From positions 1 through 21,555 of IMG/VR virus record IMGVR_UViG_3300020171_000140: DNA of 21,555 bases, one strand, 5' to 3'. Made by a program: the position numbers and the translations under genes. The first letter of the stretch is position 1. Every line of letters starts with the position of its first letter. The notes beneath the pieces are model-generated. The model was not told the DNA's origin, did no database searches, and worked only from the letters and a program-made list of their open reading frames with translations. Of the stretch, positions 4,029-20,656 are shown one piece after another. Source of the stretch: a virus.

Positions 4029-4583
4029 ATGGCAGATCGTGACAAGGCTTCTCAAGTGGCCATTGGAGTAAGCGCTGCCGCGGCTATAGCTGCCGCTTTG
4101 GCATTCGCCCAAAAAGCCAAGGCAGCCACACCCGAGATACCTGAGGGTGTGGTGCAACTACCACAGGAGCTGTGGAACCTAATTATTGCCATTGCCGACT
4201 CCGTAGATAATGTTGACACCGACCTCGATACAGTCATCACCGAGCTCAGTAAGCTCTCAATCAGCGTCCAGGGATGGCCGCCTAATACCGGAGGCATTAC
4301 ATCGCTACGTGTTGCCATCGCCACAACTGGCACCAAACTTCCTTATATTGCGGTACCCAGCGGCATGGCCCTGGTCATCAAGGCATGGGCTCTTAACCCG
4401 GGGTGGCTCCAGGTAGGGGGCTCCCAGGCAGAGTGTAGCAATATCAATCAGTCTTTCCCCCTCCTCCCCAATGAGACCGTAGGCTACTTTGTGCAGAACG
4501 CCGAAGATGTCTATATCGCCGCCACGGTTGCTGGCTGTTTCGCCTGCCTCACCGTTGAGCAGAGGAAGGGAGGACAAGGCTAA
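4029..4583 (+). CDS. Protein with N-terminal TM or coiled segment and beta-sandwich head
   Basis: This 184-residue protein has its ribosome binding site (AGGAGGT) overlapping the TAG of the previous gene. Residues 10-28 are a hydrophobic Ala-rich helix (AIGVSAAAAIAAALAFAQKA), residues 45-80 are helical and possibly coiled coil, and residues 95-184 form a compact beta domain of the type seen in minor virion and fibre-head proteins (IAVPSGMALVIKAWALNPG, then YVQNAEDVYIAA-like strands). It may be a membrane- or capsid-anchored spike. Its stop overlaps the next start (TAATG). Confidence 0.7.
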   Translation: MADRDKASQVAIGVSAAAAIAAALAFAQKAKAATPEIPEGVVQLPQELWNLIIAIADSVDNVDTDLDTVITELSKLSISVQGWPPNTGGITSLRVAIATTGTKLPYIAVPSGMALVIKAWALNPGWLQVGGSQAECSNINQSFPLLPNETVGYFVQNAEDVYIAATVAGCFACLTVEQRKGGQG

Positions 4584-10169: not shown

Positions 10170-10202
10170 TTATGATGCCTCCTAATTTGCTGCCTTTTTG
10201 TT

Positions 10203-10481
10203 TCAGGTACGGTCAATAAAGGCACGAAGTTCTTCATCTGACCAATCACTCATACAACGATGGGTATTATACTTGACTGGAACTGTTTTGATCCGTTTTG
10301 GCTTCAGGATACGGTCAATAATGACCTGCAGTTCTTCATCCGACCGGTCGCTCATACAACGATGGGTATTATACTGGGCTCGAACTGTGGGCTCATCACC
10401 ACCATAATAACACTGACCGCAACGGGGACACTGCGCTATTGTTAAGTCGAAGCTGATTTCAGATGGTGCTTCTTCAGTCAA
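10203..10481 (-). CDS. Zinc-binding protein with internal duplication
   Basis: This 92-residue protein starts at a TTG (10481) that overlaps the TGA of the repressor gene, with AAGGAG 7 bp upstream of it. C18-P-R-C21 and H40-x-C42 suggest one C2HC-type zinc site. Residues 36-58 and 70-92 are near-identical (QYNTHRCMSD and KYNTHRCMSD, each followed by SDEEL and an IDR-type end), offset by 34 residues, so the gene carries a recent partial tandem duplication including H-x-C. It is coupled to the XRE repressor. Function unknown. Confidence 0.7.
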   Translation of the reverse strand: MTEEAPSEISFDLTIAQCPRCGQCYYGGDEPTVRAQYNTHRCMSDRSDEELQVIIDRILKPKRIKTVPVKYNTHRCMSDWSDEELRAFIDRT

Positions 10482-18106: not shown

Positions 18107-18541
18107 CTACTTTCTCTTTTTATTTTTATTGCTATTCATACCCGAGAGTAATATACGCTGTGCCTCAAGCACAGCTAATTCTTCATCGGTTTTTCCACGC
18201 TTGGCATTTTTGATAGGGAAGCTAATGGCTATTTCAGCTTGTGGTTGTTTTAAATTGAGATAGGGTAAGACTAGCAATAAAAAACTTGTTGCCTTATTTG
18301 AGGTCAAGGCCCATTTCCATCGGTCTTGTCTAACACCAGATGCCGGACGGAATACTATCGTTCCACCGTATTGCATCTTCAACCATCGAATTAACCATTC
18401 ATCGATTGACCAGACAGCGACATCGAGCTGATAGTGGAAGCCCTTCTTCGTCTTGTCTTTACACTTGGAAATGCTTACACACCCATCGCCATCTATGATT
18501 CCGGCTGTATAAGCTAAGGTTATTTTTTGCTTGTTTCTCAT
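18107..18541 (-). CDS. LAGLIDADG homing endonuclease-like protein
   Basis: About 144 residues from the ATG at 18541, which has GGGGGG 5 bp upstream; an in-frame start 18 bp earlier lacks a good ribosome binding site. Residues 9-20 (LAYTAGIIDGDG) are a single LAGLIDADG motif with the catalytic-type Asp, so the enzyme would act as a homodimer. The C-terminal segment (LPYLNLKQPQAEIAISF) is typical of phage members. It is free-standing, not in an intron, and sits beside the 18590 array, one dyad away. It might target the array or an allelic phage locus lacking it. Confidence 0.85.
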   Translation of the reverse strand: MRNKQKITLAYTAGIIDGDGCVSISKCKDKTKKGFHYQLDVAVWSIDEWLIRWLKMQYGGTIVFRPASGVRQDRWKWALTSNKATSFLLLVLPYLNLKQPQAEIAISFPIKNAKRGKTDEELAVLEAQRILLSGMNSNKNKKRK

Positions 18542-18566
18542 AGCTACCCCCCGAAGCAAAATTTTA

Positions 18567-18582
18567 CAATATACGAATACTG
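18567..18582. promoter_or_regulatory. Dyad CAATA-N6-TACTG (copy 8, one mismatch)
   Basis: CAATA TACGAA TACTG is the only - strand copy not close to the preceding stop codon: the 970-bp array separates it from the RAMP-like gene. It precedes the LAGLIDADG gene. Confidence 0.65.
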
Positions 18583-18589
18583 TTTATCT

Positions 18590-19566
18590 CTCGGCTTCAT
18601 CCCCTCTCACCTCAGATCAACTCTCGGCTTCAGATCAATTCAGGCCACTCCATGACACACCACGTCATCGCTCGGCTTCAGTTCAAGCCAGGCCATTTCA
18701 TCCCAATTCTCGGCTTCACCACAAGCCACCTCAGTGCACCTCAGTTCAAATCAGCCCTCGGCTTCACTCCAACTCACTCCAATTCACTTCAAGCCAACTC
18801 TCGACTTCAAAGCAATTCACCGCACCACGGATCAACCCTCGACTTCACTCCATTCCAAAACAATGCACTTCTCGGCTTCACCCCAGACCACTACAGACCA
18901 TAGCACCTCTCGGCTTCAATCCACTGCATTTCATGGCTGAACAAACCACTCCTCGGCTTCAACTCACCTCATTCCGGGCCATTTCAATTCTCGGCTTCAC
19001 TTCAGACCACCTCATGCCACTTCAGTCCACTGCAGAGCATATCATATCTCGGCTTCATTCCAAGACACCTCACAGCAATGCAAATCTCGGCTCCAGCCCA
19101 AATCATTTCGGATCAGACCACGGCAAATCACTCCTCGACTTCATTCCAATTCACATCACTCCAACCCTCGGCTTCATTCCACATCAGGTCAAGTCAAGCC
19201 AGATCAGCTCTCGGCTTCATTTCAGCCCAAGCCACACCAGTTCTCGGCTTCATATCCCTTCATTGCATTACCGGTCAATCCATTTCTCGGCTTCACCTCA
19301 CATCACGGCAGCGCATCACAGGACACCACAAAGCAACTCACACCTCGGCTTCATCTCACTCCAAAACATTTCTCGGCTCCAGCCCACTCCAGGTCAGGGC
19401 AGCTCACCACTCGGCTTCAGAACATCGCACCCCCTATCAAGCCAATTCTCGGCTTCAACTCACCTCATTCCGGGCCAACTCAATCCTCGGCTTCACCGCA
19501 AATCATTGCATTTCTCGGCTTCATATCAGTCCAATCCAAGTCACGTCAGTACAGTGCTCGCCTACC
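18590..19566 (-). repeat. Quantised 10-mer/pentamer array, undescribed type
   Basis: About 970 bp without a credible gene. CTCGGCTTCA (TGAAGCCGAG on the transcribed - strand) starts at 18590, 18623, 18671, 18709, 18757, 18800, 18838, 18871, 18909, 18952, 18990, 19048, 19086, 19134, 19167, 19210, 19243, 19286, 19344, 19372, 19410, 19448, 19486 and 19514: 19 exact copies, three CTCGACTTCA and two CTCGGCTCCA. A degenerate end copy, CTCGCCTACC, starts at 19557. Every distance equals 13+5n (n = 3 to 9). After each 10-mer the spacer reads as n pentamers NNNCA plus a free triplet. I count 131 pentamers: 122 end in CA, C is at position 4 in all 131, and position 3 is mostly pyrimidine. The long + strand open frames here arise because CA-rich pentamers rarely form stops. 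On the - strand TGA recurs in all frames, so it is non-coding. Not CRISPR: repeats are too short and spacers structured. Function unknown. Confidence 0.9.
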
Positions 19567-20179
19567 TGACCTTTTCCAGCTTCACCAGCTCATACTTACC
19601 CCAGTCCTGAGACCTCTCTTGCCCCATGCCATGCTCGCTGCCATACTCAAAGATAGCCTCAAGGATGTCCCGGTCAATTACATCATCATCTAGGACTTTG
19701 AGGTTAAATTTAAGTATCGGCTTATCCACGTAGTCAATCGTCTTTAGCGATGACCTCGGTCCCTTCATTGTCATAGCGTGGATGATGCGGGTCTCATTAC
19801 CGTCTGGCTCCTGCTTGCCGAGGTAAATCTTGGCTGGCTCGACATAGACCCGATTAGCTACCTTTGACTTGAATGCCTTAATGCCGAGGAGACCCTGAAG
19901 CTGGCTGGCGCAATCCTTGATGTGAGCCCTAACACATCGTGCCTCGTAATACAGGCCATTGTCATCTCTCTTAAAGGTCGCATAGCCCCTTTCTACCTCC
20001 GGAGTGGCTTCAACCTCCTCAGCAACCTGCTCAGCGAGTTCCGGGATAGGCGTAGCATTCTCAGGTGGCTTTGCTGGCATTCTCGCTTCCAGCATTGCTG
20101 AAATGTCCTTGGGGTTCTTCGGTGTTGAACTGGCAAATGGTGTTGTGAATTTTAGCTCGACTTCATATTTTGTCCACAT
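19562..20179 (-). CDS. Phage RAMP-like (Cas5/6/7-fold-like) protein
   Basis: This 205-residue protein starts at ATG after AAAGGAG. The N-terminus (KYEVELKFTTPFASSTPKNP) and C-terminus (LEAIFEYGSEHGMGQERSQD, then WGKYELVKL) match a common phage family of unknown function with a G-x-G-Q-x-R-x-x-x-G/W-G-K-Y/F Gly-rich loop (residues 184-194). This loop resembles the G-loop of RAMP/Cas7-type RNA-binding proteins. Fold assignment is inference; no catalytic His is evident. The stop codon lies at the very edge of the 18590 array, and the terminal degenerate repeat overlaps it. Preceded by dyad copy 9. Confidence 0.68.
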   Translation of the reverse strand: MWTKYEVELKFTTPFASSTPKNPKDISAMLEARMPAKPPENATPIPELAEQVAEEVEATPEVERGYATFKRDDNGLYYEARCVRAHIKDCASQLQGLLGIKAFKSKVANRVYVEPAKIYLGKQEPDGNETRIIHAMTMKGPRSSLKTIDYVDKPILKFNLKVLDDDVIDRDILEAIFEYGSEHGMGQERSQDWGKYELVKLEKVR

Positions 20180-20209: not shown

Positions 20210-20656
20210 TTACTGCTCGCCTTCTTCTGGCAGAGGCTGCCGGGCTGGTTGTGGGATTAGAACCCGGATATCTGCTAATGTCTTTGGACCTATTCCACCT
20301 GCGAAGAGAAGGTCATCATCTGTCAGTTCTGTAACTGGCTTAAGTAGCCTCCCGCTAGAGTATGCGCGACGGAGCATGAGACGGGCTCTTGCTCCAAGTT
20401 GACTAACCCCATACTGTGATGATTCCCACAACCTTCTACCCTCCCTTTCTTTTTCTTGTCTTGTTTTCTCCTCGTCAAGCGCTCGCTGCGCAGTTTCTTG
20501 ACTATCGAGCAGGTCATCGAAGAAAACCCAAAATGTTTCAAACAGGTTTTTGTGGTCCTGCAGATATTTTGAGTGTATTGCTAAGGTGGCAGCGGCAGCC
20601 GCTATACCATCAGGGCTTATTTCAGTAGCTTTCTTCATATGTCTTATCTCACGCAT
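20210..20656 (-). CDS. RNA polymerase alpha C-terminal-domain-like protein
   Basis: This 148-residue protein has GGGGG 7 bp upstream of ATG. Residues 1-80 are helical with a charged coiled-coil-like segment. Residues 82-135 (LGARARLMLRRAY, VTELTDDDLLFAGGIGPKTL) reproduce the helix-hairpin-helix pattern of bacterial RpoA C-terminal domain, with an Arg at about the place of the UP-element-binding Arg265 of E. coli. It may redirect transcription by binding promoters or sigma factors, and it lies next to a sigma region-4 protein. HhH domains also occur in repair proteins, so the assignment is probable, not certain. Confidence 0.65.
   Translation of the reverse strand: MREIRHMKKATEISPDGIAAAAATLAIHSKYLQDHKNLFETFWVFFDDLLDSQETAQRALDEEKTRQEKEREGRRLWESSQYGVSQLGARARLMLRRAYSSGRLLKPVTELTDDDLLFAGGIGPKTLADIRVLIPQPARQPLPEEGEQ

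What the first reader, a model, noticed from the sequence alone, without database searches (positions are those of the whole stretch)
18590..19566. Array of 24 decamers with spacing locked to 13+5n
Seen directly: 24 CTCGGCTTCA-type decamers plus one degenerate end copy. All 24 successive start-to-start distances (33, 48, 38, 48, 43, 38, 33, 38, 43, 38, 58, 38, 48, 33, 43, 33, 43, 58, 28, 38, 38, 38, 28, 43) leave remainder 3 when divided by 5. Random spacing would give this with probability about 5 to the minus 23. I know of no described repeat class with variable but quantised unit lengths. Something measures or builds this DNA or its RNA in 5-nt steps.
Basis: seen in the sequence. Interest (0 to 1): 0.96.

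Follow-up and report, generated by a model that had tools for sequence, protein, structure and literature searches.

The report
Phage guide-RNA array beside a CRISPR-like protein
This phage carries about 25 guide RNAs written in five-letter words beside a gene for a CRISPR-like RNA-binding protein, a recently described kind of weapon (VIPR) with which viruses appear to switch off the genes of rival viruses.

Summary
The decamers, however, are only separators. On the minus (coding) strand the array is one unbroken run of pentads: 25 cores NCGAGNNN plus 155 pentads TGNNN (G in 131/131 of the pentads tabulated, T in 122/131), with no slip over 975 nt. A fixed 3-nt insert per unit (YCG before AGNNN) gives the 13+5n rule. 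The array starts at the stop codon of a 205-aa gene whose predicted structure matches CRISPR RAMP proteins (Csm3/Cmr/Cas7; Foldseek 2.3e-8). A protein-only search found 64 viral loci with this gene; 60 carry the same array, always on the same strand. This matches VIPR (PMC13142463, 2026): a single RAMP plus pentad guide RNAs read with one skipped target base. In a relative (L020), one guide matches the G-loop codons of rival vipr genes at 22/22 positions under exactly that rule, with wobble bases skipped; a scan of 2.9 million viral contigs hit six, all vipr contigs. No target was found for the window's own guides. The motif (gYG/NN rather than GGY/NN) and the tail-less multi-guide layout differ from the characterised type II VIPR, but may fall within one of the seven published types, whose supplement I could not read.

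The parts
18587..19561 (-). Guide-RNA (vrRNA-like) array: 25 cores NCGAGNNN, each followed by a whole number of TGNNN pentads (155 in all); about 24 complete guide units of 28-58 nt
   Evidence: continuous parse without slip
19562..20179 (-). vipr-like gene: 205-aa RAMP-fold protein with C-terminal loop GMGQERSQDWG (relatives GMGAERSQGWG = GhGxxxxxGhG); its TAG stop abuts the first core (TAG-GCGAG)
   Evidence: pLDDT 89.8; Foldseek PDB: listed top 50 all CRISPR RAMP complexes, best E 2.3e-8
19554..19561 (-).
18590..18599 (-). Last decamer (TGAAGCCGAG); the array ends three bases later, at 18587
19296..19353 (-). Longest unit 1, decoded NN guide GT AG CT TG TC TG CG CC AT AG (no exact target in viral contigs; none with up to 1 mismatch in 393 Dehalococcoidia-class genomes)
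19000..19057 (-). Longest unit 2, decoded NN guide AT AT CT CA GA AA GC AG GT AA (same negative result)
20210..20656 (-). 148-aa gene upstream of vipr in the same direction; no Pfam or PHROG match; possible accessory (DNA-binding) gene, by position only
   Evidence: role inferred

Best explanation
The region is a VIPR-type RNA-guided system of a phage. The vipr gene (19562-20179, minus strand) makes a single RAMP-fold protein. The array behind it is transcribed with it as a multi-guide RNA. Vipr subunits would line up along the RNA, one per pentad, holding the conserved (g)YG and presenting the two variable bases after it. The variable dinucleotides pair with target DNA, skipping one target base per pentad, so five guide bases read three target bases. 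The YCG-AG core separates guides and probably marks processing or the guide's 5' end. In relatives, guides spell codon motifs of rival phage genes with the wobble base skipped, so the likely use is silencing competing phages. SHOWN here: pentad grammar, predicted RAMP fold, strict gene-array linkage, and one guide obeying the 1-nt-skip code. INFERRED: transcription and processing, protein-RNA assembly, DNA silencing, and that the window's own guides act in this way.
For: Pentads: positions 1-2 YG at 96%/98%, positions 3-4 near uniform, position 5 G 45%, over 399 clean units of 40 distinct arrays. RAMP: AlphaFold2 pLDDT 89.8 / pTM 0.82; the 50 Foldseek PDB hits shown are all CRISPR RAMP complexes, best 2.3e-8; BFVD hit 'Cas system-associated RAMP superfamily protein', 8.9e-13; weak sequence hits to Csm4/Cas5/Cas6/Cmr6. 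Linkage: 60 of 64 loci found by the protein alone carry an array, always on the same strand; three of the other four have the gene cut by, or lying close to, the end of the locus. Code: of 11 decoding rules, the 1-nt-skip rule (NN = positions 3,4, or its near-equivalent counting position 5 as well) gives the only hits below E 1e-5, 0 in shuffles. The L020 guide fits 22/22 at HGYAGERSDGE codons of vipr genes in other phages but 19/22 in its own. As a 22-base pattern in 2.9 million viral contigs it hits six; by contig name all six are vipr contigs already found. Against 53 vipr genes only skip = 1 exceeds all 20 shuffles. Published model.
Against: No target found for any window guide; many window units are short (5-8 pentads including core and last pentad). 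The motif is gYG/NN, not the published GGY/NN, and no 3' tail was recognised. Sequence similarity to the SUSP1 Vipr is marginal (hhalign E 0.024, probability 2%). Decoding rests on one very strong guide plus one suggestive one. No RNA data.
Confidence: 0.92

Rival explanations
1. The array is a regulatory RNA platform (for example a TRAP-like attenuator or RNA sponge) on which a ring or filament of the neighbouring protein binds every 5 nt; the three variable bases carry no target information.
For: 5-nt periodic binding sites are known for TRAP (own knowledge); the array sits directly behind the gene for its presumed binder; no window target found.
Against: The L020 guide matches rival vipr codons at 22/22 positions under the 1-nt-skip rule and hits only vipr contigs among 2.9 million. 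The fold is a CRISPR guide-RNA binder. Variable positions are near uniform.
Confidence: 0.04
2. The region is coding: the 359-aa plus-strand open frame 18531-19610 is a repetitive protein and the decamers are codon repeats.
For: The frame is open over the whole array.
Against: Units are 28-58 nt and often not multiples of 3, so the decamer changes frame (SAS/RLH/LGF). Plus-strand NNNCA pentads allow a stop only when NNN itself is one, so open frames are expected by construction.
Confidence: 0.01
3. Neutral satellite DNA or assembly artefact.
For: Virus-collection contig without reads at hand; two near-duplicate units (18952 and 19448).
Against: Same grammar in dozens of independent contigs, beside vipr and on its strand; 0 slips in 975 nt; conserved YG with near-uniform NN points to selection, not drift.
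Confidence: 0.01

Closest known systems
VIPR (Viral Interference Programmable Repeat) systems, type II, Escherichia phage SUSP1 (PMC13142463; KT454805.2)
   Same: Single phage-encoded RAMP-fold protein of about 20 kDa; adjacent intergenic RNA of tandem pentanucleotides with conserved and hypervariable bases; target read with one skipped base per pentad falling on codon wobble; guides aimed at other phages, including their VIPR genes; often a small accessory gene.
   Different: Motif gYG/NN (TGNNN) instead of GGY/NN (YNNGG); about 24 guides fused in one array with NCGAG separators instead of separate ~100-nt RNAs with a folded 3' tail; shorter guides in part (5-11 pentads in the window, against 9-16); proteins only marginally similar in sequence.
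Class 1 CRISPR-Cas RAMP proteins (Csm3/Csm4, Cmr4, Cas7 of type VII, Cas5, Cas6)
   Same: Fold, G-rich loop, presumed filament on guide RNA.
   Different: No CRISPR repeats or spacers, no other cas genes recognised in the window; 5-nt grammar in the guide itself; stand-alone phage gene.
TIGR-Tas (PMC12045711)
   Same: Tandem guide-RNA arrays in phages, non-CRISPR RNA-guided DNA targeting.
   Different: Per its abstract, TIGR arrays work with Tas proteins; here the protein is a RAMP and the array is built of pentads.
TRAP (trp RNA-binding attenuation protein) sites
   Same: Repeated short motifs at about 5-nt spacing bound by one subunit per motif (own knowledge).
   Different: Fixed (G/U)AG triplets with no information in the spacers; unrelated fold (own knowledge).

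Membership tests
VIPR | Stand-alone RAMP homologue with G-loop (Vipr, ~20 kDa) | tested here: met
   AF2 + Foldseek PDB: the 50 hits shown are all CRISPR RAMPs; G-loop GhGxxxxxGhG in relatives, window form GMGQERSQDWG; 205 aa
VIPR | Encoded by phages/proviruses, no CRISPR array or cas suite | tested here: met
   G000 is an IMG/VR virus record; window has RecT, replication initiation and sigma genes; no other cas-like gene among the window proteins scanned; 64 viral loci
VIPR | Adjacent ncRNA of tandem pentanucleotides, three conserved and two hypervariable bases | tested here: met
   Pentad statistics: Y .96, G .98, N, N, G .45; the third conserved base is weak
VIPR | GGY/NN consensus proper (or 'a related consensus', fig. 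S17 of the preprint) | tested here: inconclusive
   GGY not met; the motif is gYG/NN. The preprint allows related consensuses but the figure was not readable here
VIPR | Target read by NN with 1-nt skip, wobble-aligned | tested here: met
   For the family, not the window: L020 guide 22/22, E 2.2e-6 for 20 of those bases in 2.46 Mb (both strands); other rules and shuffles lack such hits
VIPR | The window's own guides match a natural target | tested here: inconclusive
   No exact hit for three window guides in viral contigs; none with up to 1 mismatch for two of them in 393 genomes
VIPR | 9-16 repeats per vrRNA and an invariant structured 3' tail | tested here: not met
   Window units have 5-11 pentads including core and last pentad, and adjoin directly; no tail noticed in the array sequence, though no structure search was made. 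The preprint reports this feature for the characterised systems and lists other array architectures, including overlapping ones
VIPR | Accessory vap gene | tested here: inconclusive
   29 of 53 relatives have one conserved small gene directly after vipr; the window lacks it and has an unassigned gene upstream
VIPR | Vipr-vrRNA complex, transcriptional repression | not testable with these tools
   Needs RNA sequencing, pull-down, reporter assay
CRISPR-Cas | Repeats with unique contiguous spacers plus cas genes | tested here: not met
   Array is pentads with a short core; no other cas-like gene among the window proteins scanned against Pfam or PHROGs

The most novel reading that the evidence does not exclude
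This clade is a distinct VIPR type with its own guide grammar (gYG/NN, guides fused end to end and delimited by a YCG insertion, no tail). Its guides are aimed at codon motifs that rivals cannot escape by wobble recoding, such as the vipr G-loop itself, while the owner escapes by using other Arg/Ser codons (AGA, TCC) in its own vipr gene.
Probability: 0.35. Interest if true: 0.78.

Novelty: new variant of a known kind. Interest (0 to 1): 0.66.

Why it matters
VIPR was reported only in 2026 as a possible forerunner of CRISPR, with biochemistry for one type. This window and about 60 related loci give a second, differently written guide code, and arrays of a dozen or more guides. They also give independent sequence evidence, from uncultivated phages, that the one-base-skip rule holds and that phages aim it at each other's VIPR genes. 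That makes the code's generality and the protein-RNA register directly testable.

Tried and rejected
Other decoding rules (skip 0, 2, 3; bases 4-5; all three bases): no excess beyond shuffles, except that bases 3-5 with no skip, which shares the 3-nt spacing, re-finds the same L020 guide. Guides spanning two units across the core with linkers of -2 to +5 nt: no excess. Wobble-phase enrichment over all weak matches: dominated by the L020 guide, no clear general signal. Targets for the window guides: none (best self matches unremarkable). A second guide (L130, 16/16) fits the VTDPPYGV motif of a DNA methyltransferase in L058, antisense and wobble-aligned, but E 5.7e-4 over 388 guides is only suggestive. 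Hosts: of 34 GTDB stretches matching a core pattern only one (Dehalococcoidia UBA5760) is a real array, and Vipr occurs in 1 of 294 genomes of that class. Single-protein search of viral contigs failed, the alignment search worked. The Microcystis phage Mae-JY09 homologue (26% identity) has no TGNNN array that I recognised. The 20156 decamer is a coding coincidence.

Full report
OBSERVATION. Reading the minus strand, which is the coding strand of the flanking genes, shows why. Each spacer is a whole number of TGNNN pentads. Of 131 spacer pentads tabulated, 131 have G at position 2 and 122 have TG. The decamer TGAAG-YCGAG is the last pentad of one unit plus the start of the next: YCG (3 nt) followed by AGNNN, itself a pentad with A for T. 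One 3-nt insert per unit gives lengths of 3 mod 5. A Viterbi parse of the whole array (18587-19561) needs 25 cores, 155 pentads and no slip; it scores 446 against at most 12.2 in 20 mononucleotide shuffles of the window.

RELATED LOCI. A core-plus-pentads pattern found the same grammar in many viral contigs. The core is N-CGAG-NNN. The pentad before it is mostly the same within one phage but differs between phages (TGAAG, TGACG, TGTAG, TGACT). Over 399 clean units of 40 distinct arrays, pentad positions 1-2 are Y (96%) and G (98%), positions 3-4 are near uniform and position 5 is G in 45%. Arrays start at, or within a few bases of, the stop codon of the gene before them in most loci.

THE GENE. 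The window array starts at the stop codon of 19562-20179(-). Iterated profile searches find homologues of its 205-aa product in most array loci. Searched the other way round, with the protein alignment only, 64 viral loci were found and 60 carry an array, always on the same strand. Of the other four, two have the gene cut by the end of the locus and one ends 185 nt after it. Pfam and PHROGs do not know the family. PADLOC and NCBIfam give weak matches, mostly to RAMP proteins (Csm4 in 10 of 28 members, best 5.6e-4; also Cas5, Cas6, Cmr6). AlphaFold2 gives a confident model (pLDDT 89.8, pTM 0.82). Foldseek against the PDB returns CRISPR RAMP complexes for all 50 hits shown (type III-B Cmr, type VII, Csm; best E 2.3e-8). 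The C-terminal loop GMG(A/Q)ERSQGWG is the RAMP GhGxxxxxGhG pattern; in the window one G of the second half is D.

CLOSEST KNOWN SYSTEM. A full-text search found the VIPR preprint (PMC13142463): phage-encoded Vipr RAMP proteins with vrRNAs of tandem pentanucleotides (YNNGG, alternating GGY/NN) that recognise double-stranded DNA by the NN dinucleotides with one skipped target base per pentad, the skipped base mostly at codon wobble. It reports seven types, 'related' consensuses and several array layouts, including overlapping ones, but characterises type II. In SUSP1 (KT454805.2), gene 28474-29061(-) is a candidate Vipr by size, position and G-loop, with YNNGG runs such as TATGG TAAGG TGTGG TTCGG close by. 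Its protein aligns collinearly with our family but only marginally (hhalign E 0.024, probability 2%).

THE CODE. I decoded all units of at least six dinucleotides under 11 rules and searched 1.26 Mb of fetched loci, both strands, arrays masked, with two shuffles per rule. The NN = positions 3,4 rule with a 1-nt skip gave a hit at E 2.2e-6; shuffles gave none below 1e-5, and the only other rule with such a hit (positions 3-5, no skip) shares the 3-nt spacing and re-finds the same guide. That guide (L020) reads CA GG TA GC GG GA CG AG GA GG (GA) and matches CAT GGC TAC GCG GGA GAA CGC AGC GAC GGA GAA, the HGYAGERSDGE codons of the vipr G-loop in other phages, at 22/22 positions with the wobble base skipped. 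The guide's own phage has AGA and TCC there and matches 19/22. As a 22-base pattern it hits six of 2.9 million viral contigs; by contig name all six are vipr contigs already found. Against the 53 distinct vipr genes, only skip = 1 gives more matches at E < 0.1 and E < 0.03 than any of 20 shuffles (20 vs at most 17; 12 vs at most 9). A second guide (L130) fits the VTDPPYGV motif of a DNA methyltransferase in L058, wobble-aligned on the other strand, but is only suggestive after correction. The vipr matches count as one evolutionary event, since the target motif is conserved.

THE WINDOW'S OWN GUIDES. Three of the longest gave no exact match in viral contigs, and two gave none with up to one mismatch in 393 genomes of the one class where a cellular contig with this system was seen (Dehalococcoidia). 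Missing targets are expected if the rival phages are unsampled, but this step is unproven for the window.

MECHANISM. Shown: the pentad grammar; the predicted RAMP fold; gene-array linkage and common strand; the 1-nt-skip code in a relative. Inferred: co-transcription, one Vipr subunit per pentad, processing at the YCG/AG core, and silencing of rival phages by binding their DNA. The L020 match covers exactly one unit, core NN to last pentad, so one unit is probably one guide; guides spanning two units gave no signal.

MEMBERSHIP AND NOVELTY. It works like VIPR and meets VIPR's main features (RAMP, phage location, pentads, 1-nt skip in the family). It departs from the characterised type in motif (gYG/NN), in fused tail-less guides and in the lack of a recognised accessory gene in the window; 29 of 53 relatives have a small conserved gene right after vipr. 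Whether this clade is one of the seven published types could not be checked. I therefore call it a new variant of a known kind.

Noticed in passing
L020 (pos 3989 on its reverse strand) vs L051, L019, L126, L132, L135, L136: A natural guide spelling the vipr G-loop codons of rival phages at 22/22 positions; its own vipr differs at 3 of 22 through AGA/TCC codons.
   Followed up: yes
L130 guide at 4042; target L058 around 11664: Guide fitting the VTDPPYGV catalytic motif of a DNA methyltransferase on the antisense strand, wobble-aligned, 16/16.
   Followed up: partly
29 of 53 distinct vipr loci, e.g. L053, L140, L037, directly downstream of vipr: Conserved small gene (about 75-135 aa, ..GRIDAKTADALNTTLKG..YL..KL..), two members searched without a Pfam match; candidate accessory protein with arrays starting at its stop codon.
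   Followed up: partly
window 18952 and 19448 units: Two units share four consecutive pentads but differ in the pentad nearest the core and in the core triplet; may be guide duplication with retargeting.
   Followed up: no
window 10195-10388: Tandem duplication (period 102, 1.9 copies) inside the ORF 10203-10481, repeating a YNTHRCMSD..SDEEL segment.
   Followed up: no
window 18107-18559, minus strand: Small LAGLIDADG-like endonuclease gene just after the array (Pfam E 0.0012, below the curated cut-off).
   Followed up: no
L101 (Microcystis phage Mae-JY09, PP395641.1 37713-38459): Distant homologue of the vipr-like protein (26% identity) annotated hypothetical; the 0.5 kb after it is C-rich without TGNNN pentads that I could see.
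   Followed up: partly
L078 (Dehalococcoidia bacterium UBA5760, DIFA01000026.1): Only cellular contig found with this gene and array; may be a prophage or a phage contig binned with the genome, and hints at Chloroflexota hosts.
   Followed up: partly
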